Shown here: positions 1 through 14,779 of the stretch, in pieces
How positions within the stretch are numbered: position 1 is the first letter of the stretch
Layout: every line of letters begins with the position of its first letter
Assembly: GCF_004801295.1 (NCBI RefSeq)
Contig: NZ_SSOC01000002.1
Span: 1-64,000 of the forward strand
Length of the DNA stretch: 64,000 nucleotides
Direction of reading: 5' to 3'
Source: Pseudothauera nasutitermitis
Lineage (GTDB): Bacteria; Pseudomonadota; Gammaproteobacteria; Burkholderiales; Rhodocyclaceae
The notes under the pieces: generated by a model
The model's input: the letters and a program-made list of their open reading frames with translations, nothing else
Told to the model about the DNA's origin: nothing
Databases searched by the model: none
Made by a program: the position numbers and the translations under genes

Positions 1-23
1 TCACGCGCGCGCCGGCGCAGCCG

Positions 24-2899: not shown

Positions 2900-4396
2900 G
2901 TGCTGACCAAGGCCGATTACCAGCGGGCCATCCGCGATTCGATTGCTTCCTACCCGACCATCGCCCCTCTGTACCAGGCGGGCGACCCGCGCATCATGCA
3001 GCACCTGGACGCGATGGCAACCATGCTGGCGATGTTCTCGGCGCAGGTGGATGCGGCTCACGCGGAGCCGTTCGAGAAGACCCGCGACGCGACCGTGCTG
3101 GCGGATGCCGCCATGCGCGGCATCGTGCGCAAGGGCAAGTCCGCGCGTGTGCGCGTGCGGGCCATCAACACCAGCTCCAGCGCCTTCACGGTGGAGTCCG
3201 GCCGCACGCTGCTGGATTCGTCGGGCCTGCTGTGGCGCGTCGAGACGCCGGCTGCCGTGCCCGCCGGCGGCGAGGCCACGTTCGAGGCCAGCCAGGTGCG
3301 CTCCAGCACCATCACGCATACCGTGAGCGGCACCGAGCCGTTCTACGCCATCGAGGTTCCGGCGCCCGAGGACGACTCCTACCTGTGCGCCATCGCCGTC
3401 AGCGACGTGGATGGCGCCTTCGAGTACCGCGACCGCTACGTGAACACGGCGCCCGATGAGCGCGTGTTCCACGTCGAGGCGGACGACCGCCAGCGAACCT
3501 ACATCCGGTTCGGCTTCGACGGCGTGGTGGGCGTGCAGCCCAAGGACGGCGCGGAAATCACCCTGACGGTGTTCTACACCTCGGGCGAGGTCAGCCCGGC
3601 CTACGACAGCCCGTTCTCGTTCGAGTACCTGGGTTCGCCGGCCGAGTCCGCCATCGAGCTGCGCATGGACGCGCTGCTGATCGCCGGCCAGAACCCCATG
3701 CCCATGTCGGTGCTGCGCGACCTGGCGCGCTACCCGTCGGTGTACGACAACAACGCCGTGTTCCTGGGCGAGTTCGACTTCCTGGTGCGGCGCAACTTCC
3801 CGACCCTGCAATTCCTGTCCGTCTGGAACGAGTCGGCCGAGGAACAGGCGCGCGGCCCGGCCTTCGACAACATCAACGCGATCTTCGTGGCCTGCCTCTC
3901 CAGCGAGGGCGGCGAGGACGTGCTGATCGAGGACGACCCGGACGTGCCGGTGCCGCCGGTGGTGATCGCCGACGCCGACCTGACCGGGACGCAGCAGTCC
4001 ATCAAGGCGGCAATCCTGGCCGCCGACGACAGCTACCGCGTCCGCTTCTTCTCGCCCGTGCGCTCGAAAATCCGCATGACCATCAGCGCGCGGGTTTCCA
4101 CCTCCTACGTGGCGTCCGACGTGAAGCAGAAGATCATCGAGGCGCTGATGGCCGAGTTCGGCCCGTCCTCGGCGGCATCGCGGCGCGGCCGCCAGCGCCC
4201 GCTGTACCAGCGCGTCTATGCGCTGCTGCGCCAGAAGGTGCCAGCCTTGTCCGACGGCGAGGCCGACCTGACCGTGGGCATCGTGGAGCCGGCCTCGCTG
4301 CTGGCCCGGCCCGAGATGTGGCGCTATCTGGACACCGACACCCTGAGCGTCACCGTGGAGACGGTGAATATCGTCACGCCTTCCTGGGGCGGGTAA
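2900..4396 (+). CDS. Baseplate J-like protein
   Basis: 498 residues with a GTG start right after the preceding stop. The N-terminal part carries helical segments and a KTRDATVLADAAMRG region, then a beta-rich middle containing YIRFGFDGVVGVQPKDGAE, which resembles the conserved core of gpJ/gp6-type baseplate wedge proteins. The C-terminal part has the typical alternation of charged helices and strands (ISARVSTSYVASDVKQKIIE). The family forms the ring of the baseplate periphery in contractile-tailed phages. Its place directly upstream of a gpI-like gene matches the J-I order of P2- and Mu-like tails. Family assignment is good; exact subfamily is not determined. Confidence 0.75.
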   Translation: MLTKADYQRAIRDSIASYPTIAPLYQAGDPRIMQHLDAMATMLAMFSAQVDAAHAEPFEKTRDATVLADAAMRGIVRKGKSARVRVRAINTSSSAFTVESGRTLLDSSGLLWRVETPAAVPAGGEATFEASQVRSSTITHTVSGTEPFYAIEVPAPEDDSYLCAIAVSDVDGAFEYRDRYVNTAPDERVFHVEADDRQRTYIRFGFDGVVGVQPKDGAEITLTVFYTSGEVSPAYDSPFSFEYLGSPAESAIELRMDALLIAGQNPMPMSVLRDLARYPSVYDNNAVFLGEFDFLVRRNFPTLQFLSVWNESAEEQARGPAFDNINAIFVACLSSEGGEDVLIEDDPDVPVPPVVIADADLTGTQQSIKAAILAADDSYRVRFFSPVRSKIRMTISARVSTSYVASDVKQKIIEALMAEFGPSSAASRRGRQRPLYQRVYALLRQKVPALSDGEADLTVGIVEPASLLARPEMWRYLDTDTLSVTVETVNIVTPSWGG

Positions 4397-4399
4397 GCC

Positions 4400-6055
4400 A
4401 TGCCCCTGGATTTCTCGAACGCCCAGCTCCCGCGCCTGCTGCCGCTGGAGAACAGCTACACCGAAAACGAGGTCGAGGCCGACCTGAAGCAGTTGTTTCT
4501 CGACCTGTTCGACTCGACCCTGGCCGCCGACACCTTCGACGTGAATGTGCTGGGCGCGGCGCACCTGGGCAGCTTTGACTTGGTGCGCAAGGCGGTCAAT
4601 GCCGACGGCCTGGTGCTGATGCAGGGCGACCGCGAGGAAGCCGCCACCCGCTACCTGTACCGGGCCTGGAAGTCGGGCGACGTGCAGGGGCGCGGGCTGC
4701 ACTTCCTGCGCACCTACCTCCAGATGCTGTTCCCGAACCTGTGCCAGGTCGATCAGCTCTGGCACGACAAGGCGCTGCCGTACCCGACCGGCCTTTATCC
4801 CTCGACGCCGCGCTTTTCGTGGTGGCTGCACCAGATCGGCGAACCCGGCCTGAAGTTGGACGGCACCTGGGGCATCGGCCGGCGCATCCTGAACGCCGAC
4901 GAGAGCCGCGCCGACCGGCCCATCGACACCGACCAGATGTACCTGACCAGCCGGGTCGAAATCGTGCTGGACTTCAGTGTGAATGTGCGCTCGATAGCGA
5001 GCCTCATGCACATCATCCGCTCGGTGATTCCCGCGCGCCTGCTGCCGGTGTTCCGCTTCTGGCTGAACTTCGTCCTGTACGTCGAAATCCTGGCATCGTC
5101 CAAGCTGCTGATGCAGAAGAACTCGCGGATGCGCTACCCCTGGTGCGGGCGCGTGATCGGCGATTCCACCGATGTGCGCTGGAAGCTGGGCAAGGATGGC
5201 GTGCTGGTCAAGCTGCCGCAGCCCTTCGGGTCGTTCCGCCTGGGCGAGGCGCGCGGCGGCAAGTCCGTGTGGCACCTGAAGGGCTGCCGCATCCAGAGTT
5301 CGGCCCTGCTGGAGAGCAAGGCCAGCGCGATCATCTATCGGCTGCCAAAGGTGGGCGAGGCCGACCGGCGGCTGGACGGCACCTGGCGGCTTGGCGGCCG
5401 CTCGCTGTACGTCGGCAGCCGTGCGGCCATGCAGAAGCGCATCGAGATGGCGGCGCCGGCCAGCCTGGTGACGACGTTCCACGACAAGCACCAGATCAAG
5501 TACCCGGCCACGCCGGCGCGCCTGGGCAGCACGGCCCGCCTGGCGCCGTGGCGCCGCCTGGACGGCCGCTGGCGCGTGGGCGAGAAGTCCGTGCGCCGGC
5601 CCTTCGGTTTCGCCATCGAGCGCGACGAGGCTTTCCTGGCCGACGGCTCCCTGGGTATGACTTCGACGGCGAATGCCTGGGCCATCCCCGAGCGCCTGGC
5701 GCGGCCCGCCGCCACGAAGCTCAAGGGCACCTCGCGCAAGCTCAACGGTACGTGGTTCCTGGGCGCGGAGAACCGCATTGGGCGCTTCCCCCTGGACGGC
5801 CGGCGCCTGCGCGCCATGCAGATGACCCAGTACCCGCGCATCGGGCACTTCGCCATCGCGGCAGACATCCCTGGCGACGTGGAATACGCCTCGGGCGACG
5901 TGCGCCGCCTGCGCCTCGATGGCGCCTGGCGCATCGGCGGCCCGGCCGCGCCGGAGTTCAAGCTGGAGGTGTTCAAGGTGCCGGGTGGGCCGGGCTACGA
6001 GCCGGAGCCGCTGGCCGACCTGGACGCCTCTGTACTGCCTGACGGCCTGGAATGA
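4400..6055 (+). CDS. gpI-like phage tail protein with repeated LDGxWxxG motifs
   Basis: 551 residues. The N-terminal 230 residues, including VIPARLLPVFRFW near residue 209, look like tail protein I-type baseplate proteins that attach fibres. The rest is built from degenerate repeats with an LDGTWxxG-like core near residues 152, 324, 386, 447 and 505 (LDGTWGIG, LDGTWRLG, LDGRWRVG, LNGTWFLG, LDGAWRIG), plus a weaker copy near 260. This suggests a repetitive beta-structured shaft or fibre-docking module. It starts 3 nt after the J-like gene. Its stop is at 6053-6055, but protein-like sequence continues in another frame to 6170 (see separate entry), so the C-terminus may be disturbed. Confidence 0.7.
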   Translation: MPLDFSNAQLPRLLPLENSYTENEVEADLKQLFLDLFDSTLAADTFDVNVLGAAHLGSFDLVRKAVNADGLVLMQGDREEAATRYLYRAWKSGDVQGRGLHFLRTYLQMLFPNLCQVDQLWHDKALPYPTGLYPSTPRFSWWLHQIGEPGLKLDGTWGIGRRILNADESRADRPIDTDQMYLTSRVEIVLDFSVNVRSIASLMHIIRSVIPARLLPVFRFWLNFVLYVEILASSKLLMQKNSRMRYPWCGRVIGDSTDVRWKLGKDGVLVKLPQPFGSFRLGEARGGKSVWHLKGCRIQSSALLESKASAIIYRLPKVGEADRRLDGTWRLGGRSLYVGSRAAMQKRIEMAAPASLVTTFHDKHQIKYPATPARLGSTARLAPWRRLDGRWRVGEKSVRRPFGFAIERDEAFLADGSLGMTSTANAWAIPERLARPAATKLKGTSRKLNGTWFLGAENRIGRFPLDGRRLRAMQMTQYPRIGHFAIAADIPGDVEYASGDVRRLRLDGAWRIGGPAAPEFKLEVFKVPGGPGYEPEPLADLDASVLPDGLE

Positions 6056-6170
6056 CGAGGAAACCGGGAACCTGCGCGACTCGACCAAGGGCGATTTCTC
6101 GGTGGCGGGCGGCACCTACCGGCGCTGGCACGTCGCGCCGTCCTGCCGGGCCGCCATCACCCAGGGCTGA
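6039..6170 (+). CDS. Possible small phage ORF, or out-of-frame C-terminal extension of the upstream tail protein
   Basis: In the frame that ends at the TGA of 6168-6170 the DNA encodes about 43 residues with a convincing composition (TAWNDEETGNLRDSTKGDFS followed by a Gly/Tyr/Arg/Trp stretch). It overlaps the end of the preceding tail gene by 17 nt. No ATG, GTG or TTG lies at the right place; the first plausible codon is CTG at 6039. Two readings are open: a separate small protein with a non-standard start, or a frameshift (programmed or mutational) that removed a C-terminal extension of the tail protein. Confidence 0.35.
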   Translation: MTAWNDEETGNLRDSTKGDFSVAGGTYRRWHVAPSCRAAITQG

Positions 6171-6281
6171 CCGTCTCCGCCCGGCGGGCCGTTGTGGGCC
6201 GTCTGGATTCGGAAAAAGCCGCCAAGCCGGGGTGTTCCTGGCAACCAGAATGGCCGGCATCACGTTCATAGGAGGGCTGAC

Positions 6282-6662
6282 ATGGCTGAAGCCGTCGTCG
6301 TCAACACTTACCGCCAGCGCATCGCGGCCCGCATGGCCGGCGGCGCGCAGCTCGCGCCTGTCGCCTACATGGCCTTCGGCGATGGTGGGCACAACGCCGA
6401 CCTGACGCCGAAAGCCCCGTCCGCCAGCGCGACCGCGCTCAACCACGAAATCCTGCGCAAGCCCCTCGCGGCGATCACGCAGGAAGACCTGTATTCGGTG
6501 ACTGGCAAGGGCGCGGTCGAGGCCAATGAGGTTGTCGGCGCCGGAATCTCCGAGGCGGCCCTCATCGACGCCAACGGGCAGCTTGTCGGCCTGAAGACGT
6601 TTGCTCCGAAGTTCAAGGAGAACGACGAGCGTTACGAAATCAGCATCAAGCTGCGCTTCTGA
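6282..6662 (+). CDS. Phage tail-collar/tail-fibre-associated protein
   Basis: 126 residues, ATG at 6282 with a strong AGGAGGG ribosome binding site at about 6270-6276. The N-terminus (TYRQRIAARMAGGAQLAPVAYMAFG) resembles the conserved beginning of gpH-like tail-collar fibre proteins, which bind the baseplate. There is no long fibre region, so this is probably a short adaptor rather than a complete fibre. It is followed after 14 nt by another fibre-region gene with its own ribosome binding site. The assignment is from sequence style and position and could be a related structural family. Confidence 0.6.
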   Translation: MAEAVVVNTYRQRIAARMAGGAQLAPVAYMAFGDGGHNADLTPKAPSASATALNHEILRKPLAAITQEDLYSVTGKGAVEANEVVGAGISEAALIDANGQLVGLKTFAPKFKENDERYEISIKLRF

Positions 6663-6676
6663 AAGGAGTTTCCACA

Positions 6677-7594
6677 ATGGCACTGCCCCATCCCAACATT
6701 TCCCCGATTCCCAACAACGAGCCGGATGCCGTCCCGTCGCTGTGGAACACCCGCTACCAGGAAATCGACGAGAACTTCGCCGATCACGAAACGCGCGTGG
6801 CGGCCCGCGAAACCGAGCTGAACAACGCCCGTGGCGGCAAGGCCAACCTGGCCGCCCGCCTGACCGAGATGGACTCGAACATCGGCGCGACCTCGGTGGA
6901 CATGCAGAACGCCACGGCCGCCGCGCTGAAGTTCGCGCTCGACCAGGCCGCGCTGGCGAACTACGGCGTGCGCGCGTTGCGCGAACAGGCCCAGCAGGAG
7001 GGCGTCGTCACGATCAAGAACCGGGGTGTCGTCAAGGGCTGCTCGGTGTCGAAATCGACCACGGCGGCGCGCAACCTGAACATCGTCACCGGCGTGTGCT
7101 TCGCCAACGGCCGGGCCTATCCCGTGTCCGATGGCACCAATGCTGCCTCCGTGCCCAGCAACATCGGCTCCAGCTCCGTGGTGGTGTATGCCTACCTGTT
7201 CCAAGATGCGAACGGCCTGTGGCGCCTGGCGGTGACGCCCATCGGCACGACCGTTCCCGACGGCGCCATCACCATCTACAACCTGACCATCCCGGCGAAC
7301 TCGACCGATGCCACCGACCCGAACCTGACCGGCGTGGCGATGACGGACGTTCGCCGCGTCGAAGCGCAGTTCCCGCAACTGTTCGACAACCCGGCCGGCG
7401 CGTCGCCCGTCCTGCAAACGCTGGGTGCCAACGACTACGGCCTGTCCTTCGACGTGGTTTCCGCCGACGGCGCGCCCTGCGACAGCCGGCACATCGTCGT
7501 TGCCAGTCGCGCCACCAATGGATTCACCGTCCGTTTGGCGAGCGCGGCCGACAACGTGGTTCTGCGCTGGCGCGCCAGCAAGCTCAACAACTAG
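6677..7594 (+). CDS. Phage tail fibre-like structural protein
   Basis: 305 residues, ATG with an AAAGGAG site about 9 nt upstream. The N-terminal 100 residues are predicted helical, with a possible short coiled coil around ETELNNARGGKANLAARLTEMD. The remainder is beta-rich with Asn/Thr/Ser/Val content typical of fibre shafts and tips. It lies between a collar-type protein and the DGR target, suggesting it is part of the same fibre assembly that presents the variable receptor-binding protein. No enzymatic motif is visible. Confidence 0.6.
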   Translation: MALPHPNISPIPNNEPDAVPSLWNTRYQEIDENFADHETRVAARETELNNARGGKANLAARLTEMDSNIGATSVDMQNATAAALKFALDQAALANYGVRALREQAQQEGVVTIKNRGVVKGCSVSKSTTAARNLNIVTGVCFANGRAYPVSDGTNAASVPSNIGSSSVVVYAYLFQDANGLWRLAVTPIGTTVPDGAITIYNLTIPANSTDATDPNLTGVAMTDVRRVEAQFPQLFDNPAGASPVLQTLGANDYGLSFDVVSADGAPCDSRHIVVASRATNGFTVRLASAADNVVLRWRASKLNN

Positions 7595-7611
7595 GAAAGG
7601 AGCAATCCACC

Positions 7612-7932
7612 ATGCAAATCATCCTCAAGCAGGACGGCCAGCCCGTCGCCGACTTCTCGGTGTCGGGCGCCAATGTCACCGTCGCCGGCGTCGCCATCGA
7701 CTGCGCCGAGCGCCAGCAGGACATCGCCGTCTCGGTCGAAGTCCGCCAGAACATCGGCGGCCCCAGCGAAGGCGGCAACGGCGCCTACCTGGCGCAAATC
7801 GAGATTCCGGCACGCCGCTACGAGACGGTCACTGTCCCCGCCGAAGGCGAGGACGAACAGCCGACCGAGCTGCGCGAGCCGCTGCCGCTCGACCCGAACG
7901 CCGTCGTCGTCACGCTCTGGCCCACGGCCTAA
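7612..7932 (+). CDS. Small phage protein upstream of the DGR target, function unknown
   Basis: 106 residues from an ATG at 7612, with GGAAAGGAG at about 7594-7602 as ribosome binding site. The sequence is acidic and beta-rich, with no signal peptide, membrane segment or catalytic motif. It is followed 42 nt later by the target gene, which has its own AGGAG site. The position suggests a fibre or chaperone-like partner of the receptor-binding protein, but this is inference from neighbourhood only. Confidence 0.6.
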   Translation: MQIILKQDGQPVADFSVSGANVTVAGVAIDCAERQQDIAVSVEVRQNIGGPSEGGNGAYLAQIEIPARRYETVTVPAEGEDEQPTELREPLPLDPNAVVVTLWPTA

Positions 7933-7974
7933 GCGCGCGGCACCACCCCGACCGATTCATCAGGAGAAACCTAC

Positions 7975-9069
7975 ATGCCTTCCATCTTCGTCAAGGACGA
8001 CCTGCGCGCGTCCGTCGAGGCCGCCACCGGCGGCAAAGTCACGGTGCTTTACACCGCCAGCGGCCAGCCCTCGTACATGAACGTCATCCCCAAGTTCAAC
8101 CTGGAAGACATCGACGCGGGCCTGGGTTCCGGTGTGCATCCGGCGTTCATCGTCGGCGGCGTCGAGAAGTCCGAGCTGTTCATCGGCACCTACCAGGGCA
8201 TCAACAAGAACGGCGAGTTCCTGAGCTTGCCGGGCGTCGATCCCACCGTGTCGCAGAACTTCGACTACTTCGCCAACCTGGCGCGCGCCAACGGCCCCGG
8301 CTGGCACGCCATCAGCAGCATCGAGTTCACGGCGCTGGCGCTGTGGTGCTGGAAGAACGGCTACATGCCGCGCGGCAACAGCAACTACGGCCGCTCCAGC
8401 GATGCCACCTGGGAAACCGGCCGGCGCGTCGATGGCGGCACCCCCGGCGATACCTCGACCGGCGGCCGCACGCTGACCGGCTCCGGCCCGGTGAGCTGGC
8501 GCCACGACAACAGCGTGGGCGGAATCGCTGACCTGTGCGGCAACATCTGGGAATGGTCGCCGGGCCTGCGCGTGGTGGCCGGTGAAATCCAGGTCATCGC
8601 CAACAATGACGCGGCGCTGAATGCCACCGACCTGGGCGCCACGTCCTCGGCCTGGAAGGCCATCGACGGCGATACCGGCCTGCTCATCAACCCGACCTTC
8701 ACCGGCACCATCGCCGGCGGCGACTACGTGCCGACCACGCCGAAGTCCGTCCGCTACAACACGTCGGGCACCGCGAACTACACGCTGGTTCGCGCCTCGG
8801 GCCAGTCCTTCGAGGGTATGACCAACCCCGGCGCGACGCCGGTGTCGGCCGCCGCGCTGACCGTGCTGAAGAAGTACGGCCTGTACCCGGTGGCGAACAC
8901 GGGCCTGGGCGGCGATGGCTTCTACCTGAACGTGGAAGGCGAACGGCTGGCGATCCGTGGCGGCAACTGGGGCCGCGCCGCCATCTCGGGCGTGTTCGCG
9001 CTGCACCTGGCCAGCGCTCGGTCGAGCGCGGACACGAGCATCGGCTCCCGCCCCGCTTTTGTGCTCTGA
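7975..9069 (+). CDS. DGR target: variable receptor-binding protein with C-type lectin/FGE-like fold
   Basis: 364 residues, ATG at 7975 with an AGGAG site about 10 nt upstream. The C-terminal half contains signatures of formylglycine-generating-enzyme/C-type-lectin folds used by DGR targets: GGIADLCGNIWEWSPG (182-197) and, at the end, IRGGNW (327-332) and SIGSRPA (355-361). Codons 323-361 form the variable repeat. Compared with TR1, ten residues differ (E323, G333, R334, H344, A346, S347, S351, A352, D353, S355), and eight of these are Asn in the template. Known role of the family: host receptor recognition at the fibre tip. The gene sits at the end of the tail operon just before the retroelement. 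The N-terminal 100 residues probably dock to the fibre (inference). Confidence 0.9.
   Translation: MPSIFVKDDLRASVEAATGGKVTVLYTASGQPSYMNVIPKFNLEDIDAGLGSGVHPAFIVGGVEKSELFIGTYQGINKNGEFLSLPGVDPTVSQNFDYFANLARANGPGWHAISSIEFTALALWCWKNGYMPRGNSNYGRSSDATWETGRRVDGGTPGDTSTGGRTLTGSGPVSWRHDNSVGGIADLCGNIWEWSPGLRVVAGEIQVIANNDAALNATDLGATSSAWKAIDGDTGLLINPTFTGTIAGGDYVPTTPKSVRYNTSGTANYTLVRASGQSFEGMTNPGATPVSAAALTVLKKYGLYPVANTGLGGDGFYLNVEGERLAIRGGNWGRAAISGVFALHLASARSSADTSIGSRPAFVL
8941..9057 (+). repeat. Variable repeat (VR) of the DGR
   Basis: 117 bp at the 3' end of the target gene, aligned without gaps to 10113-10229 at a constant offset of 1172. By my count 104 positions are identical and 13 differ; all 13 are adenines in the template (10 A to G, 3 A to C). 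All 91 non-adenine template positions are conserved. The 3' edge is a GC-rich invariant segment (about 9040-9057) that should act as the initiation-of-mutagenic-homing site. After 9057 the copies diverge (TTTGTG against CTTGGG). The left edge is blurred: 8940 is C against template A, 8939 matches. Confidence 0.97.
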
Positions 9070-9091
9070 AATCTGGGGCGTGTCATCTGAT

Positions 9092-9113
9092 GGGGTGGGC
9101 GATAGCCCACCCC
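9092..9113 (+). other. Hairpin/cruciform downstream of the VR (DGR target-recognition element)
   Basis: GGGGTGGGC at 9092-9100, GATA loop at 9101-9104 and GCCCACCCC at 9105-9113 form a perfect 9-bp stem with a 4-nt loop, 22 nt after the target stop codon. Published work on the Bordetella phage DGR describes a hairpin of this size and loop length just downstream of the VR that is needed for efficient homing. The position and shape fit that role. There is no T-run after it, which argues against a simple terminator. Confidence 0.8.
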
Positions 9114-9150
9114 TCGGGCCTCTCCAAGAAAACCGCTCAGGGAATCCAAG

Positions 9151-9744
9151 ATGAACGAAACGAACTTCGAGCACGCCATCTACGCCGTGCTCCTGCAAAT
9201 CGCGGTGGGCGTGCTCACCGGCAACTGGTGGATTGGCGCCGCCGCTGGCGTCTTCTTCTTCCTCGGCCGCGAGCACGCGCAGTTCGAGCGCAAGCTGGCC
9301 GTCGCCGGCGGCACCGTCGGCACGCTCAACCCGCTGGCCGGGTTCCAGCTCTGGAAGTGGAGCCTCGACAGCCAGCTCGACCTGGCGTTTCCCGTCGCGG
9401 CGACGCTGCTGGTGGCCCTCGGCTGGCACCTCGGCGTGAGCGTGCCCTTCGTAGTGCTGTTCTCGGCCCTGGTGCTGCTGAACGTCGCCGACGCGGTGCT
9501 CACGGTGCGCGTGCTGGATGCCGGCGGCCGCGAGCTGAACCCCGTCATGGCGAAGGCCATGAGCTGGATTGGCGTGGTGCCGGCGCTGGTGGTCGTGAAG
9601 GTCGTTGCTCTCGCGGCGTTCTACGTCGGCCTGGGCGTGCAGGCGCCGGATTGGGTCTATACGCCCCACGTCACAGCGGGCCTGTGCGGCTTCTATGGCT
9701 TGGTCGTCTGCAACAACTGGCGGCTGGTGGCCGCGCAGGCGTGA
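9151..9744 (+). CDS. Integral membrane protein between VR and avd, DUF5658-like motif
   Basis: 197 residues with several hydrophobic segments, probably five or six membrane helices. The N-terminal third (EHAIYAVLLQIAVGVLTGNWW, then FFFLGREHAQFE) is a short helical module I associate with phage-encoded membrane proteins. The C-terminal half carries ADAVLTVRVLDAGGRELNPVM, resembling DUF5658-type proteins. It has no recognisable enzyme motif and is too long for a typical holin, although a lysis or membrane role is possible. Its TGA overlaps the GTG start of avd1 (GTGA), so it is translationally coupled to the retroelement, which is unusual for a DGR cassette. Confidence 0.7.
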   Translation: MNETNFEHAIYAVLLQIAVGVLTGNWWIGAAAGVFFFLGREHAQFERKLAVAGGTVGTLNPLAGFQLWKWSLDSQLDLAFPVAATLLVALGWHLGVSVPFVVLFSALVLLNVADAVLTVRVLDAGGRELNPVMAKAMSWIGVVPALVVVKVVALAAFYVGLGVQAPDWVYTPHVTAGLCGFYGLVVCNNWRLVAAQA

Positions 9745-10112
9745 CGCGGCCAGTCCAGAGCGACCTACTGATTCGGCAGAAATGCGAGGCAATGATCGAG
9801 TACGGCCACACGGCCGTCAGGCAGTTTCCCAAGATGGAGCGGCACGTCCTCGGCGCGGAGATTCGCGCCACGATGTGGGCGGTGCTTCGGTTGATCGTGG
9901 TGTGCAACAAGCGATACCACAAGAAGACCACGCTTCAGGACTTGGACGCCGAACTCGACCTGCTGCGCTCGCAGGTGCGGATGGCGAAGAACATGGGCTA
10001 CCTCGACTTCAAGAAGTATGAGCACTGGTCGCGCTTGAACGACGAAATCGGCCGGATGGTAGGCGGTTGGGTCAAAGCATTTGCCGGAGACGGCAATGGG
10101 GGTGCGCGTTGA
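9741..10112 (+). CDS. avd: DGR accessory variability determinant 1 (Avd)
   Basis: 123 residues if started at the GTG of 9741 that overlaps the upstream TGA; an internal ATG at codon 18 is less likely because the family is about 110-130 residues long. The protein is almost entirely helical and basic, with AVRQFPKMERHVLGAEIR and a C-terminal NEIGRMVGGW-like segment (NDEIGRMVGGWVK), as in Avd/four-helix-bundle proteins. Known role: a pentameric helical bundle that binds the reverse transcriptase and template RNA during mutagenic cDNA synthesis. The TR1 starts directly at its stop codon. About half of the motif positions are shared with avd2 at 11466. Confidence 0.88.
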   Translation: MTRPVQSDLLIRQKCEAMIEYGHTAVRQFPKMERHVLGAEIRATMWAVLRLIVVCNKRYHKKTTLQDLDAELDLLRSQVRMAKNMGYLDFKKYEHWSRLNDEIGRMVGGWVKAFAGDGNGGAR

Positions 10113-10229
10113 AAACGGCTGGCGATCCGTGGCGGCAACTGGAACAACGCCGCCATCTCGGGCGTGTTCGCGCTGAACCTGAACAACGCTCGGTCGAACA
10201 CGAACACGAACATCGGCTCCCGCCCCGCT
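10113..10229 (+). repeat. Template repeat 1 (TR1) of the DGR
   Basis: 117-bp non-coding template for the VR. It begins immediately after the avd1 stop and is, by chance or history, in frame with avd1. It holds 26 adenines on the + strand, mostly in AAC codon positions when read in the target frame (nine AAC triplets). Half of the adenines differ in the present VR. AAC is the classic DGR choice because A-randomisation of AAC yields many residues but no stop codon. The downstream 175 nt to RT1 is probably part of the same structural RNA. Confidence 0.96.
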
Positions 10230-10404
10230 CTTGGGGAAAGTCAGGAACGGCAGGCCCACGGGCCTGACGGCAGCACACCCTCAAAAGGACGCGCATCCCC
10301 CGGCCACGGGAAACCTGAAGCCGGAAGATTGAACAGGCGGCCCGAACCAGTAGCCCGATTGGGCGACCGTTCGCAGCCGCCGCCCTTCGGGGTCTTGGGT
10401 TTAT
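10230..10404 (+). ncRNA. Probable DGR RNA spacer downstream of TR1
   Basis: No open reading frame of interest lies here. In the Bordetella phage DGR, about 140 nt 3' of the TR are needed in the template RNA to prime and position cDNA synthesis. This 175-nt stretch has the right place and size. No secondary structure was computed. The corresponding gap in the second cassette (about 11952-12117) is of similar length. Confidence 0.5.
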
Positions 10405-11469
10405 ATGGCGAAGACGTACAACAATCTCTACCCGGACATTTACAGTTTCGAGTCCCTTCACGCGGCCTACATGCTCGCCCGGCGTGGCAAGCGAGATAGG
10501 CGCGAAGTCCAGAAGTTCGAGCAAGACCTGGAAGGCAACCTGATTCAGCTCCAGAACGAGCTTATCTGGGGCATGTACCAGACGGGGCACTACCGCCAGT
10601 TCACTGTCAGCGAGCCGAAGGAACGCCTCGTCGCCGCGCTGCCGTTCCGCGACCGCGTGCTCCAGCACTCGCTGGTGTCGGTGATCGAACCGCTTTGGGA
10701 GCGTCGATTCATTTTCGACAGCTATGCCTGCCGGCCGGGCAAGGGCACCCACAAGGGCGCCGACCGCGCCGAGGCCATGCTTCGCAAGGTGAAGCGCGAG
10801 CACGGCCATGTGTATGTGCTCAAGGCCGACATCTCCAAGTTCTTCTACAGCATCGACCACGGCGTGATGAAGTCGCTGGTGCGCCGGCGCATCCGGTGCC
10901 GCCGCACGCTGAAGCTGATCGACGGCATCATCGACTCGACGGCCACGCCAGGCGACCCGCACCCCGTCGGCCTGCCCATCGGCAACCTGACCTCGCAACT
11001 GTTCGCCAACGTGTATTTGAACGAGCTGGACGAGTTCGTGAAGCATGTGCTGCGGGAGAAGAACTACCTGCGCTACATGGATGACTTCCTGATCGTGCAT
11101 CACGACAAGGCTCACCTGCACCGCATCCGCGCCCAGATCGAGCGGTTCCTGTGGGAGCGCCTGCGGCTCAAGACGAACGCCAAGACCCAGGTGTTCCCCG
11201 TCGGCGAGCGGTTCGGCCGCGCCGTGGATTTCCTGGGCTACAGGATATGGACGACGCACCGGCGCATCAGGAGAAGCTCGATTTCGCGCATCACCCGCAC
11301 GCTCAAGCGCCTGCGCAGGCAGTACGCGGCCGGCAAGATCGACCTCTCGAAGATCAGGGAATCGGTCATGTCGTGGATAGCGCACGCGAGCCATGCGGAA
11401 ACCTACGGCCTGCGCCGCAAGCTGCTGGCCAGCACCCCCTTCACGCGCGGGGAGGGCCGGCCCCAATGA
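10405..11469 (+). CDS. DGR reverse transcriptase 1
   Basis: 354 residues, ATG at 10405. Reverse-transcriptase motifs are intact: LKADISKFFYSID (139-151, catalytic Asp in palm motif A), PIGNLTSQ (191-198, the DGR-type fingers/palm motif replacing the QG box of other RTs), YMDDF (224-228, two catalytic Asp) and FLGYRI (276-281). There is no maturase, endonuclease or retron-type C-terminal domain, in line with compact DGR enzymes. Known role: reverse transcribes TR RNA with errors at adenines, with Avd. Its TGA overlaps the avd2 ATG (ATGA), linking both cassettes in one transcript. Confidence 0.95.
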   Translation: MAKTYNNLYPDIYSFESLHAAYMLARRGKRDRREVQKFEQDLEGNLIQLQNELIWGMYQTGHYRQFTVSEPKERLVAALPFRDRVLQHSLVSVIEPLWERRFIFDSYACRPGKGTHKGADRAEAMLRKVKREHGHVYVLKADISKFFYSIDHGVMKSLVRRRIRCRRTLKLIDGIIDSTATPGDPHPVGLPIGNLTSQLFANVYLNELDEFVKHVLREKNYLRYMDDFLIVHHDKAHLHRIRAQIERFLWERLRLKTNAKTQVFPVGERFGRAVDFLGYRIWTTHRRIRRSSISRITRTLKRLRRQYAAGKIDLSKIRESVMSWIAHASHAETYGLRRKLLASTPFTRGEGRPQ

Positions 11470-11816
11470 GCGACGCCCACCTGGCGCTGATGACGAAATT
11501 GGAGGAATTGGACGCCTACACCCACACGGTGCTGCACCAGTTCCCCAAGCTCGAACGGCATCTGCTGTGCGCCGAGATGCGCGGCACCATGAACAGGGTG
11601 ATTCGCCAGGTCGTGGTGGCGTGGAAGCGCAGGCAGAAGTCCGCCGCGCTGTTCGACCTGGACGTGGAAATCGAGGTGTTTCGGGGCCTCATCCGCAAGG
11701 CCCACCGGCTGGGCTACATCAACACGCACCGGCTGGAAGTCTGGATGCGGCACACGAACGAGATAGGCCGCATGGTAGGGGCCTGGATTAAGAACGAGGG
11801 AGGCAAGGCCATGTAG
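11466..11816 (+). CDS. avd: DGR accessory variability determinant 2 (Avd), second cassette
   Basis: 116 residues, ATG at 11466 overlapping the RT1 stop. The sequence is helical and basic, and clearly homologous to avd1: HQFPKLERHLLCAEMRGTM aligns with RQFPKMERHVLGAEIRATM, and NEIGRMVGAWIK aligns with DEIGRMVGGWVK. The middle part is much diverged, so the copy is not a recent duplicate. It probably serves RT2 and TR2, but cross-use with RT1 cannot be excluded. The next element, TR2, begins within about 25 nt of its stop. Confidence 0.88.
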   Translation: MSDAHLALMTKLEELDAYTHTVLHQFPKLERHLLCAEMRGTMNRVIRQVVVAWKRRQKSAALFDLDVEIEVFRGLIRKAHRLGYINTHRLEVWMRHTNEIGRMVGAWIKNEGGKAM

Positions 11817-11840
11817 CGCGCCGCTCTCCCAAGCGATGGG

Positions 11841-11951
11841 GCAGAGGCTTACTCCGGCGGCAATTGGGGCAACGGCCAGAACGCCGGCGCCTTCCATCTC
11901 AACGTCAACAACGACGCGGAGTTCTCGAACTCCAACATCGGTGGCCGCCTC
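11841..11951 (+). repeat. Template repeat 2 (TR2), orphan in this window
   Basis: Read in the avd2 frame, the segment encodes AYSGGNWGNGQNAGAFHLN, then VNNDAEFSNSNIGGRL. This is the typical DGR template pattern (GGNW, AxxF-L-N, SNSNIG) and matches the layout of TR1 and the target VR. Eight Asn codons, seven AAC and one AAT, fall between 11862 and 11936. It is followed by stop-free but meaningless sequence and is not part of a gene with a start. DNA identity to the VR at 8941 is far too low for it to be its template. No second VR was found, so boundaries are estimates. Confidence 0.75.
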
Positions 11952-12117
11952 GCAAACGACATTGCCAGAAGGCGGGCGGTTCAAGCGGCCACCGTCCAGT
12001 GCATTTCCTTTGGGGCCTGTGTCCTGACCATGCTGTCGAAGATGAACAGGGCGCCACGGCAAGTACCCGGCACGCCGGCGAACGTGGTGGCGCCCGACCA
12101 CCCCCAACAGGAACCCC

Positions 12118-13191
12118 ATGCCGAAGACCATCAGCGGCCTATGGCCGAGCATCACCCAATTCGACAACATCTACCGCGCCTATCTTGAGGCGCGCCGCAG
12201 CAAGCGGTATCGACCCGACGTGCTGCGCTTCTCCGAAAGCCTGGAAGACAACCTTTTCGCGCTCCAGGCGGCCATGATCGAGAAAACCTGGACGCCCGGC
12301 CCGCAGCGCGAGTTCATCGTGCGCGAGCCGAAGCTGCGCGCCATCCAGGCGCCGCCGTTCGCTGATCGCGTGGTACATCACGCCCTGGTGGCCGTTGTCG
12401 GCCCGCACTTCGAGCGGCGGTTCATTTCCGATTCGTTCGCCTGCCGCGAGGGTAAGGGAACCCAGGCCGCCGTGGCGCGCGTGCAGCACTTCCTGCGCGT
12501 CGCCAAGCGCAACCACGGCGACGACCTCTACGTGCTGAAGGCGGACATCAGCAAGTATTTCGCCAGCATCCGCCACGACGTGCTCATGCGCGAGGTGGAG
12601 CGGGTCATTTTCGACCCGGACGTGCTCTGGCTGTGGCGCCGCATCATCGCTGGCTACGGGCACGAGAACGGCGTGGGCCTGCCCGTGGGCGCGCTGACCA
12701 GTCAGCTCGGGGCCAACGTCATGCTGAACCGGCTCGATCACATCGCCAAGGACGACCTCGGGCTGCGGCACTACGTCCGGTACATGGACGACTTCATCGC
12801 CATCCTGCCGAACAAGGCCGCCGCGCAGCAGGCCATGCAGACCCTGGGCGAGACGGTGCGCGAGCTGGGCTTGTGGCTGAACCCGAAGACGGCAGTTCAT
12901 CCCTGGCAGCGCGGCATTGACTTTTGCGGCTACCGCATCTGGCCCACCCATGTGCTGCCGCGCAAGAGGAACATCAAGCGGGCGCGGGCCGACTTCAGGG
13001 AACTGGCGAGCCAGTTCTACCACGGGGAGGTCGATCTTGAGCACGTCCGCCAGCGGGTGATGTCCTTCTTGGCCTATGCCAAGCATTGCAACGCCCAGCG
13101 GACGGTCGAGGGCGTGCTCGGCGACCTTGTGCTGGTGCCCGGCCTGCGCGACATCGCCGAGAAGGCATCAGGCATTCCCATGACGCCGTAG
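12118..13191 (+). CDS. DGR reverse transcriptase 2, second cassette
   Basis: 357 residues, ATG at 12118. The RT core is intact: LKADISKYFASI (140-151), PVGALTSQ (189-196, DGR-type motif with Ala instead of the usual Asn), RYMDDF (221-226) and FCGYRIW (269-275). It is collinear with RT1 over its whole length but strongly diverged, so the two represent different DGR lineages or an old duplication. With all catalytic Asp present it should be active. It lies about 165 nt after TR2, matching the TR1-RT1 spacing. It is the last phage gene before the chromosomal junction. Confidence 0.93.
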   Translation: MPKTISGLWPSITQFDNIYRAYLEARRSKRYRPDVLRFSESLEDNLFALQAAMIEKTWTPGPQREFIVREPKLRAIQAPPFADRVVHHALVAVVGPHFERRFISDSFACREGKGTQAAVARVQHFLRVAKRNHGDDLYVLKADISKYFASIRHDVLMREVERVIFDPDVLWLWRRIIAGYGHENGVGLPVGALTSQLGANVMLNRLDHIAKDDLGLRHYVRYMDDFIAILPNKAAAQQAMQTLGETVRELGLWLNPKTAVHPWQRGIDFCGYRIWPTHVLPRKRNIKRARADFRELASQFYHGEVDLEHVRQRVMSFLAYAKHCNAQRTVEGVLGDLVLVPGLRDIAEKASGIPMTP

Positions 13192-13362
13192 CGTAACTTT
13201 TGGCGTAACTCGTTTTTTAAATTGTTGATTTTAAAGGGCCATAGACCCGTGCATCATCGGCGTGTGTTGCGCCAGTGCTGCCTGGCCGAGGTTTGCGCTA
13301 TCGCTCATCAGTCCGTTGGATCTCCGGTTTTCCCGATGTTTCGTTTAGGCATCTGTACTATT
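13191..13362. other. Prophage/chromosome junction region, AT-rich, with a short direct repeat
   Basis: The 171 bp between RT2 and the ABC transporter gene hold no gene. GCGTAACT occurs at 13191-13198 and again at 13203-13210, a 12-bp spacing, followed by T/A-rich sequence (TTTTTTAAATTG, then GATTTTAAA) that contrasts with the GC-rich surroundings. Such features are common at phage ends (integrase or transposase binding), but no att core or terminal CA/TG pair can be proven here. No convincing terminator was seen. Confidence 0.35.
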
Positions 13363-14145
13363 TTACAGCATGCTCTGCAGGAAGGCGCGCGTGCGCGGGT
13401 GGCACGGGTTGGCGAAGAATTCTCCGGCCGGGGCGTCCTCGATGAGTTCGCCCTGGTCCATGAAGATCACCCGGTTGGCGACTTCGCGGGCGAAGTTCAT
13501 CTCGTGGGTGACCACCAGCATGGTCATGTGCTCCTCGGCGAGCTGGCGCATGGTGCGCAGCACCTCGCCGGTGAGTTCGGGATCGAGGGCGGAGGTGGGT
13601 TCGTCGAACAGCATGATGTCCGGCTCCATCGCCAGCGCGCGGGCGATGGCCACGCGCTGCTTCTGCCCGCCGGAGAGCTGGGAGGGGTAGCTGGCGTGCT
13701 TCTCGGCCAGGCCGACCTTGGCGAGCAGGCGTTCGGCGGTGGGCAGGATCTGTTCGCGCCTGAGGCGCTTGACGGTGATCGGCGCCTCGATGACGTTCTG
13801 CAGCACGGTCATGTGCGGGAACAGGTTGAACTGCTGGAACACCATGCCCATCTTGCGGCAGATGCGGCGGATGTCGGCGTCGCCGACGTAGCGGCAATGG
13901 CCTTGCGCGTCGGTGTCGACCAGGGTTTCGCCCTCGATGTCGATGCGTCCGCGGTCGATGGTCTCCAGGTGGTTCAGGCAGCGCAGGAAGGTGCTCTTGC
14001 CGGAGCCGGACGGGCCGATCACGGCGATCACGTCACCCTTGCCCATGTCCAGCGAGACGCCCTTGAGCACTTCGACGTGGCCGAAGCGCTTGTGCAGGTC
14101 GCGTGCGGAGATCATCGGCGCGGCATCAGTCGTCATAGCGGGCAT
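13363..14145 (-). CDS. Polar amino-acid ABC transporter ATP-binding protein (GlnQ/HisP type)
   Basis: 260 residues. Walker [10 protein letters not shown] (44-52), Q-loop region VFQQFN, signature LSGGQKQR (157-164) and Walker B with [10 protein letters not shown] (181-190) are all present. The length and the [15 protein letters not shown] motif place it in the polar amino-acid uptake family. It overlaps the permease gene by 20 nt if started at 14145; an internal ATG ([12 protein letters not shown]) at 14115 would remove the overlap. It supplies ATP hydrolysis for the permease and binding protein encoded upstream. The substrate cannot be decided; glutamine, other polar or sulfur amino acids are possible. 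Confidence 0.93.
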
Positions 14146-14779
14146 AGCGTTTTTCCATGCGCTGGAAGATCCAGGTGAGCACCAGGGTCATGATCAGGTA
14201 GAAGGCCGCGGCGACGATGAACGGCGTGGTGGTGAAGTCGCGCTGGACGATGCCGCGCGCCACGCGCAGCAGGTCGTTGAGCGCCAGCACGTAGATCAGC
14301 GAGGTGTCCTTGACCAGGGTGATGGTCTCGTTGCTCATCGGCGGCAGGATGCGCTTGATGACCTGCGGCAGGACGATGCGGCGCATGGTCTGCGCGTAGG
14401 TGAGGCCGAGCACCCGGGCGCCCTCGTACTGGCCCTTGTTGATCGACTGGATGCCGGCGCGGAAGATTTCCGCGAAGTAGGCCGCGTAGTTGAGCGCGAA
14501 GGCGACCACGGCGGCGGGAAAATCCGGCAGCTTGATGCCGACCACCGGCACGAAGGGCAGGGCGAAGTAGATGAACAGCATCTGCAGCATCAGCGGCGTG
14601 CCGCGCATCAGCCAGATGTAGCCGTTCACCGCCGTGCTGATCGAGCGCAAGCGCGAGATGCGCAGCAGCGCCAGCACCAGCCCGAGCGGCACCGACAGCG
14701 CCAGCGTGATGAAGAACAGCTTGAGCGTGACGGTGGTGCCCTGCCACAACGGGCCGAGGAGGGAAAGCACGTAATCCAT
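14126..14779 (-). CDS. Polar amino-acid ABC transporter permease (HisM/GlnP family)
   Basis: 217 residues with about five hydrophobic segments. The N-terminal [19 protein letters not shown] and the cytoplasmic EAA loop ([22 protein letters not shown]) are diagnostic of the HisMQ permease family. Only one permease gene is present, so the channel is probably a homodimer. The gene lies between the ATPase and the binding protein gene, downstream of a terminator hairpin that should lower its expression relative to the binding protein. Confidence 0.93.

What the first reader, a model, noticed from the sequence alone, without database searches (positions are those of the whole stretch)
9741..13191. 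Tandem double DGR: two avd, two TR and two RT genes in one phage operon
After the first cassette (avd1-TR1-RT1) a second, full cassette (avd2-TR2-RT2) follows without a gap; avd2 overlaps the RT1 stop codon. Both RTs keep the catalytic YMDDF and the DGR GxLTSQ motif, yet the sequences are strongly diverged. DGRs I know of normally have one RT, one or few TRs and one accessory gene. A pair of diverged, collinear cassettes could let one phage diversify two proteins with different RT/Avd/TR specificity, or make hybrid complexes.
Basis: partly seen in the sequence, partly recalled or inferred. Interest (0 to 1): 0.95.

Follow-up and report, generated by a model that had tools for sequence, protein, structure and literature searches.

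The report
Phage with two tandem hypermutation cassettes
This bacterial virus carries two different self-mutating gene cassettes side by side, one matching its tail protein and one matching a separate protein encoded far away in its genome, so two recognition proteins could change independently.

Summary
Two full DGR cassettes, avd1-TR1-RT1 and avd2-TR2-RT2, lie head to tail at 9741-13191, at the right end of a temperate myophage prophage. TR1 matches VR1 in the nearby tail-protein gene: 12 of 13 differences fall on TR1 adenines. The target of cassette 2 is outside the window, on another contig of the same genome (C1:807735-807845). There TR2 and VR2 differ at 13 of 24 adenines and 0 of 78 other bases of a 102-nt core. 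VR2 ends a stand-alone 325-aa protein whose model resembles the DGR variable protein TaqVP. Two other tandem phages were found (hosts Burkholderia, Pigmentiphaga): their TR2 cores differ from ours by 0-1 base, while the VR2s differ pairwise at 15-17 sites, mostly TR2 adenines. In single-cassette relatives one RT2-type DGR serves both a fibre in cis and the remote protein. RT1 and RT2 fall in separate clades. Best reading: a second cassette took over the tail job, and the older one was kept for the remote protein. Two-target phage DGRs are known; my searches of an open library showed no tandem cassettes. The remote protein's function is unknown.

The parts
7975..9069 (+). target gene 1 (364 aa, tail-type variable protein)
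   Evidence: phrog_2889 E=1.4e-132 (unknown function), phrog_5302 tail E=1.2e-10; holds VR1
8942..9061 (+). VR1, variable repeat of cassette 1
   Evidence: 89% identical to TR1; 12 of 13 differences at TR1 adenines
9092..9113 (.). hairpin 3' of VR1, 9-bp stem and 4-nt loop
   Evidence: DNA fold of 9062-9130 z -2.61
9151..9744 (+). 197-aa gene between target 1 and avd1 (phrog_1443, DUF5658), role unknown
9741..10112 (+). avd1 (GTG start)
   Evidence: PF22296 bAvd, NF033474 above cut-off
10114..10233 (+). TR1
   Evidence: the query 10100-11469 found in the own genome itself, VR1, part of the RT2 gene and an RT gene on C9
10405..11469 (+). RT1
   Evidence: RVT_1, phrog_1423; clade separate from RT2
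11466..11816 (+). avd2, overlaps the RT1 stop
   Evidence: PF22296 bAvd, NF033474 above cut-off
11855..11956 (+). TR2 core (102 nt)
   Evidence: matches VR2 on contig C1 (C1:807735-807845, 111-nt match): in the core 13 of 24 A changed, 0 of 78 non-A
12118..13191 (+). RT2, last gene of the prophage if the att candidate is right
   Evidence: RVT_1, phrog_1423; tree
13189..13201 (.). att candidate (13 nt) overlapping the RT2 stop; same 13-mer at G000:C1:789398-789410, just before the integrase gene
   Evidence: integrase

Best explanation
Two complete, separately acquired DGRs sit in tandem at the end of the late operon of one temperate myophage. Cassette 1 diversifies the nearby tail protein (VR1, in cis). 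Cassette 2 diversifies in trans a 325-aa stand-alone C-type-lectin-like variable protein (VR2), encoded in the early region, about 60 kb away in the linear prophage (about 20 kb if the phage circularises at the att candidate). Ancestrally one RT2-type cassette served both a fibre in cis and the remote protein, as it does in relatives. In the tandem lineage the fibre end was replaced by a module with its own target, avd1, TR1 and RT1, and avd2-TR2-RT2 was kept for the remote protein. Seen in sequence: the tandem, the adenine-specific TR/VR pairs, the remote gene, its recurrence in relatives, the separate RT clades. Inferred: the order of module replacement, that RT2/Avd2 copies only TR2, the contig join, the label 'early' (gene content and strand, no expression data), and any function of the remote protein. 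My leading guess for that function is an early intracellular or cell-associated binder used in host conflict (about 0.4), ahead of an extra virion adhesin (about 0.35) and a released decoy or exclusion factor (about 0.2).
For: VR2 was found by searching the whole genome with TR2 (E 2.1e-30; the next match E 0.1). In the core 13 of 24 TR2 adenines are changed against 0 of 78 other bases; the wider 111-nt match has 3 further differences, not at adenines, at its 5' edge. All 10 remote copies examined show the pattern: 4-19 adenines and 0-2 other bases changed. That scoring tolerates adenine changes; with neutral scoring, flanks included, the counts are 6-21 adenines and 0-6 others, P below 3e-5 in 9 of 10 and 0.016 in G402. 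TR2 cores of the three tandem genomes differ by 0-1 base, VR2s pairwise by 15-17, 14-15 of these at TR2 adenines. Ten single-cassette genomes or records, two of them perhaps one phage, have a cis VR from the same TR: 7-15 adenines, 0-1 others. A hairpin follows VR2. RT1 and RT2 are in separate supported clades. RT1-only L199 and L201 share full-length 6677-7594, target 1, avd1 and RT1; 11 of 12 RT2-only loci share only its first 70-97 residues. A relative's single contig crosses the C1/C2 junction in the same gene order.
Against: No expression or mutagenesis data exist. The remote target and the cassettes are on different contigs in all three tandem genomes; the join rests on one relative's gene order and a 13-nt att candidate, and the empty-site test was uninformative. 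Deeper in the tree RT, Avd and target types mix: several RT2-clade loci carry target-1-like genes, so co-inheritance holds only among close relatives. Record G405 (67 kb) has RT2 and a cis VR but no remote gene; it may be incomplete. G402 shows only 4 adenine changes in the core. Against more distant relatives the scaffold of the remote gene has dN/dS 0.22-0.73. The tree is a quick search with SH-aLRT support only.
Confidence: 0.85

Rival explanations
1. Cassette 2 is a leftover: VR2 was diversified in the past, and avd2/RT2 no longer work or are not expressed.
For: No sigma-70-like site was found in 6600-13400, though 0.8 are expected by chance and the operon may start upstream; no expression data exist.
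Against: avd2 and RT2 are open, with dN/dS 0.10-0.15 against the two tandem relatives. VR2 differs between phages whose TR2 is the same or nearly so, which implies retrohoming since their split.
Confidence: 0.08
2. The two RT/Avd sets cross-talk (hybrid complexes), either RT copying either TR; the second cassette adds a template rather than an independent machine.
For: Both sets are of DGR type and probably co-expressed from overlapping genes. In single-cassette relatives one RT serves two VRs.
Against: RTs are 45% identical and from separate clades. In the 13 loci closest to RT2 (L051-L063) Avd is avd2-type, in the 12 closest to RT1 (L197-L208) avd1-type. Both pairs show low dN/dS. None of this excludes cross-talk.
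Confidence: 0.2
3. Tandem duplication of one DGR followed by divergence.
For: Same gene order in both cassettes; the two TRs are distantly alike.
Against: Each RT groups with single-cassette phages of its own type in starred sets that exclude the other. Targets and late genes also differ by type.
Confidence: 0.03
4. The remote protein is a second virion adhesin (an alternative fibre tip), not an early non-virion protein.
For: It hits phrog_5302, tail protein, E=7.9e-34. It is 50-55% identical to the matching part of the cis fibres of close relatives. The best named viral structural matches are mostly tail collar fibre proteins.
Against: The gene is a stand-alone domain. It lies beside a YqaJ-type recombination module in five other genomes (one of them seen only in part), near SSB or DNA methylase genes in three, and by Mu-type transposition genes in one. 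Position alone does not exclude a virion role.
Confidence: 0.35

Closest known systems
Bordetella phage BPP-1 DGR
   Same: Order tail target (mtd), small gene (bbp7; avd by recall), TR, brt in the record.
   Different: One cassette and one VR in the annotated stretch; Brt groups elsewhere in the tree.
Quimbyvirus DGR (PMC8008677; passages seen)
   Same: A second target far from the structural genes on the opposite strand, near methyltransferase and nuclease genes, with a C-type-lectin domain.
   Different: One RT (in three overlapping frames) serves both targets; here two RT/Avd/TR sets divide them.
Gut prophages with a second distal VR (PMC12629997; passages seen)
   Same: Remote VR near counter-defence genes in four prophage species.
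   Different: No second cassette is mentioned in the passages seen.
nd4/nd12 tentaclin phages (PMC10743442; passages seen)
   Same: Two targets hypermutated in one phage.
   Different: Both VRs come from one TR, targets within the cassette.
DGR with two TRs and six VRs (PMC6642488; passages seen)
   Same: More than one TR in one DGR.
   Different: The passage does not mention a second RT.
Thermus aquaticus TaqVP (PDB 5vf4; PMC6328139 passages)
   Same: Nearest solved relative of the remote protein: FGE-type C-type-lectin fold, single domain, prophage DGR.
   Different: TaqVP belongs to its DGR cassette; ours is remote.
Genomes with several DGRs or trans targets (Thiohalocapsa PMC10907252, Trichodesmium PMC8867640, Nostoc PMC7517822, Bacteroides sp. 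1_1_14 PMC3521204; passages)
   Same: Several DGRs in one genome; in the first three, targets dispersed or diversified in trans.
   Different: Bacterial genomes; the passages do not describe adjacent cassettes in one phage operon.

Membership tests
DGR (cassette 1) | DGR-type RT with Avd | tested here: met
DGR (cassette 1) | TR/VR pair with changes at TR adenines | tested here: met
   12 of 13
DGR (cassette 2) | DGR-type RT with Avd | tested here: met
DGR (cassette 2) | TR/VR pair with changes at TR adenines | tested here: met
   13 of 13 in the core; 13 of 16 in the 111-nt match; 15 of 18 with neutral scoring. VR on another contig
DGR (both) | VR at the 3' end of a C-type-lectin target gene | tested here: met
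   VR2 protein. VR1: end of its gene; its own fold was not predicted, only phrog hits
DGR (both) | hairpin 3' of the VR (feature recalled from work on BPP-1) | tested here: met
   own VR1 and VR2; no stem of 6 or more pairs after the remote VR of G400
DGR (both) | mutagenic retrohoming in vivo | not testable with these tools
   only the footprint in sequence was seen
Two-target single-RT phage DGR (Quimbyvirus type) | one TR serves both targets | tested here: not met
   in the tandem phage TR1 gave no match above threshold to the VR2 locus, nor TR2 to target 1; met in RT2-only relatives

The most novel reading that the evidence does not exclude
A temperate phage runs two dedicated hypermutation machines: one for virion tropism, and one for an early-expressed, non-virion lectin-fold binder that acts inside or at the surface of the infected cell, for example against host defence. 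That would be a hypermutable recognition protein serving the phage after entry, with its own RT, Avd and template, and shared between unlike phage backbones (a 90% identical copy lies in a Mu-like phage).
Probability: 0.33. Interest if true: 0.9.

Novelty: new variant of a known kind. Interest (0 to 1): 0.72.

Why it matters
It is a natural case in which two DGRs of different lineages share one operon but match different targets, so RT/Avd/TR specificity can be tested by single gene removals in one phage. It also strengthens the comparative case that some phages keep a DGR for a protein outside the late tail module: the remote gene recurs with RT2-type cassettes in unlike phage backbones, with adenine-specific variation in each copy examined.

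Tried and rejected
Rejected: a missing target for TR2 (found on contig C1); tandem duplication; a non-DGR RT2. The first structure prediction with 10 sequences was poor (pLDDT 40.9) and was not used; the second with 46 sequences gave 94.6. An empty attachment site could not be shown: in 5 genus relatives the left flank is conserved up to about C1:789254, but the right flank gave only paralog-like matches or short pieces in the rows listed. No tRNA in C1:778000-794999. Rfam gave one weak match, below its cut-off, in 6000-14500. Sediminimonas G414 has a target-2-like gene (41%), but its TR does not match it adenine-specifically (16 of 77 other bases differ). G405/L171 was a self-hit on the TR and was dropped from the remote count. 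G399 and G404 give the same cis VR counts and may be one phage, so the lack of a remote gene in G399 may only be a contig limit. B. hinzii (G397, G416) and Gulbenkiania (G400, G419) seem to appear twice through two collections and are counted once. Inverted repeats in L018 gave nothing used. My earlier notes call the 446-aa gene beside the YqaJ gene recT and the 215-aa gene a repressor: no call shows the first (phrog_3657, unknown function), and the second rests on a RacR match below its cut-off. No paper was read whole; papers were seen as listings or find passages. Those opened without use above: PMC8144416, PMC11792537, PMC4372165, PMC10053308, PMC7981956, PMC4159848. One survey (10.1093/nar/gkx1150) was not held.
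Full report
Observation. avd1 (GTG 9741 to 10112), TR1 (10114-10233), RT1 (10405-11469), avd2 (ATG 11466 to 11816) and RT2 (12118-13191) follow each other on the + strand, with avd2 overlapping the RT1 stop. Both Avd proteins pass the curated cut-off, and both RTs hit reverse transcriptase families. RT1 and RT2 are 45% identical over about 326 residues.

Cassette 1. TR1 and VR1 (8942-9061, near the end of the 364-aa gene 7975-9069) differ at 13 of 120 positions; 12 are TR1 adenines and one is a C. In the whole genome the TR1-RT1 stretch found, besides itself, VR1, part of the RT2 gene and an RT gene on C9. VR1 is followed by a hairpin with a 9-bp stem.

Cassette 2. No VR for TR2 was found in the window; the nearest match besides itself was VR1, in register, with 38% of non-adenine bases different. 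The genome search found one at C1:807735-807845, minus strand (E 2.1e-30, next match 0.1). In the 102-nt core 13 of 24 TR2 adenines are changed and 0 of 78 other bases (P 2.7e-10); the 111-nt match has three further differences at its 5' edge that are not at adenines. With neutral scoring over 116 nt the counts are A 15/27, C 1/40, G 0/32, T 2/17, P 3.6e-9. VR2 ends a 325-aa gene (C1:807728-808705). A hairpin and then a terminator-like hairpin follow it.

Where it lies. The right end of C1 looks like the left part of the prophage: integrase from 789487, genes mostly on the minus strand, then terminase, tail sheath and other genes on the plus strand up to the contig end. In the relative G404, one contig carries homologs of the last C1 genes followed by homologs of window 24-2501, 2900-4396, 4400-6055, 6192 and 6677 in order, so window position 1 very probably continues C1. 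A 13-mer occurs at window 13189-13201, overlapping the RT2 stop, and at C1:789398-789410, just before the integrase gene. A 13-mer match among so many positions is not in itself rare; its two places make it a plausible att core. If both joins hold without a gap, the prophage is about 79 kb, TR2 and VR2 are about 60 kb apart in it, on opposite strands, and about 20 kb apart in a circle closed at att (arithmetic from these coordinates).

Relatives. Scans with RT2 gave 80 viral loci (capped, of 106) and 32 genome loci; 33 of 395 family genomes, own included, matched at E 1e-30. Two RTs in tandem were seen in the own genome and in two more: Burkholderia sp. LMG 13014 (L130; RT1 98%, RT2 97%) and Pigmentiphaga sp. 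NML080357 (L131; 98%, 97%). With further viral scans by RT1 and three other DGR RTs (one search capped at 80 of 329), 334 loci, redundant ones included, were checked with an RT profile; 333 had an RT. Adjacent pairs were in 5 loci, which represent these same three phages (L020, L050 and L196 own; L130; L131). Two other loci (L087, L317) looked like one RT in two frames, and L160 had a weak second hit. Many loci have short flanks, so this is a lower bound.

Remote target in relatives. The 325-aa protein was searched for in 11 genomes or records. Nine hold a remote copy, at 60-96% identity; G399 and G405 hold only the cis copy. For the 10 remote copies (own first, then G395, G396, G400, G404, G403, G397, G401, G402, G398) the changes are 13/24, 15/24, 10/24, 11/27, 12/28, 19/27, 9/24, 13/26, 4/25 and 15/26 adenines against 0, 1, 1, 2, 1, 0, 0, 0, 0 and 2 other bases. 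That scoring penalised adenine changes less, so I repeated it neutrally: adenines 15/27, 15/25, 12/27, 12/30, 12/28, 21/32, 9/24, 13/26, 6/30 and 18/31 against 3, 4, 4, 4, 1, 6, 0, 0, 4 and 6 others; P is below 3e-5 in nine and 0.016 in G402. In nine single-cassette genomes or records and in G421 the TR also matches a cis VR (7-15 adenines, 0-1 others); G399 and G404 may be one phage. So one RT2-type cassette serves two targets in the seven single-cassette genomes that hold a remote copy. In five of these (G398, G401-G404) the remote gene is on the strand opposite to the cis target; in G397 and G400 it is on the same strand. Of 16 further records, the six RT2-type ones include two with a remote copy (apparently second entries of B. 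hinzii and Gulbenkiania) and four of 11-34 kb with the cis copy only. Of ten RT1-type ones, nine have no match or only a short weak one, including a 71-kb record (G406), and G414 has a 41% copy that its TR does not match. Most are fragments, so absence is weak evidence.

Recent activity. G000 and G396 have identical TR2 cores and G395 differs by one base, yet their VR2s differ pairwise at 15-17 sites, 14-15 of them TR2 adenines. Outside the VR the remote gene has dN/dS 0.085 and 0.02 between own and the other two tandem genomes; against L135, L052 and L133 it is 0.22, 0.65 and 0.73, so the scaffold itself is less constrained at depth.

Origin. In a tree of 117 RTs (from 150, reduced at 85% identity; quick search, SH-aLRT support only), RT1 lies in supported sets of 12 and 22 rows and RT2 in sets of 12 and 31 rows, each without the other. 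Among RT1-only loci, L199 and L201 share full-length 6677-7594; L197, L198, L200 and L202 match part of it and L203 none. All seven have target 1, avd1 and RT1; the 7613 gene matched only in L197 and L199. Of 12 RT2-only loci compared, 11 match only the first 70-97 residues of 6677-7594 and L060 the first 155, before a different fibre. The simplest order is replacement of the fibre end by an RT1-type module upstream of a retained avd2-TR2-RT2; other orders are possible. At greater depth the types mix (several RT2-clade loci have target-1-like genes).

What the remote protein is. A 46-sequence alignment gave a model with pLDDT 94.6 and pTM 0.94. Its best PDB matches are DGR variable proteins: TaqVP (5vf4, Foldseek E 8.2e-16, TM 0.55-0.60 on the query), then Mtd and TvpA with weaker overlap (TM 0.34-0.38). 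The profile finds TaqVP at 1.7e-66. Among viral models the best named hits are mostly tail collar fibre proteins (TM up to 0.83). The N-terminal strand belongs to the fold, so I infer no signal peptide (no predictor was run). Neighbourhoods: beside the YqaJ-type module in G396, G398, G402 and G404, and in G395 as far as its contig was fetched; near SSB in G401 and G403 and near C-5 DNA methylase genes in G401 and G397; and near an AAA and a Mu-type transposase gene in the Gulbenkiania phage, where the protein is 90% identical to ours although no other called protein of our prophage matched in the 20 kb fetched around it. This favours an early, non-virion role, while sequence homology favours a tail-type adhesin; I cannot decide.

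Comparison with what is known. A phage DGR with a second target far from the structural genes, on the opposite strand and near methyltransferases, was described for Quimbyvirus (PMC8008677, passages); four gut prophages with a distal second VR near counter-defence genes are reported (PMC12629997, passages). As far as the passages show, each has one RT cassette. Several DGRs per bacterial genome and targets diversified in trans are known. Six searches of the open library and the passages seen did not show two adjacent DGR cassettes in one phage; subscription papers and at least one survey could not be read, so this is not proof of absence. I file it as a new variant of a known kind.

Noticed in passing
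L070 (IMGVR_UViG_3300043120_000159) 4895-4999 and 11794-11899: A single-cassette phage with two VR-like repeats on the same strand on either side of the RT (18 and 10 adenine changes, 4 others each): another two-target arrangement.
   Followed up: no
G000:C9:43298-44149 (L019): Another reverse transcriptase gene elsewhere in the genome, 36% to RT2; RVT_1, best NCBIfam match group II type but below its cut-off.
   Followed up: partly
L188 15608-16549 (Gulbenkiania mobilis prophage): A remote target 90% identical to ours sits in an unlike, Mu-like phage; the gene seems to move between phage backbones.
   Followed up: partly
window 9151-9744: A 197-aa gene (phrog_1443, DUF5658) between target 1 and avd1 in the three tandem phages, with half-length homologs in L197 and L199; role unknown.
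   Followed up: no
window 1 and start of the L131 contig: By gene offsets, the contigs carrying the cassettes begin at nearly the same place (about window 1-130) in two assemblies, which hints at a hard-to-assemble stretch (inferred).
   Followed up: no
G000:C1:810967-811839 (L015 15968-16840): Gene with an LprI-type (lysozyme inhibitor) domain between the remote target and a repressor-like gene.
   Followed up: no
L087 and L317: DGR-type RT genes in two overlapping frames; programmed, decayed or sequencing error.
   Followed up: no
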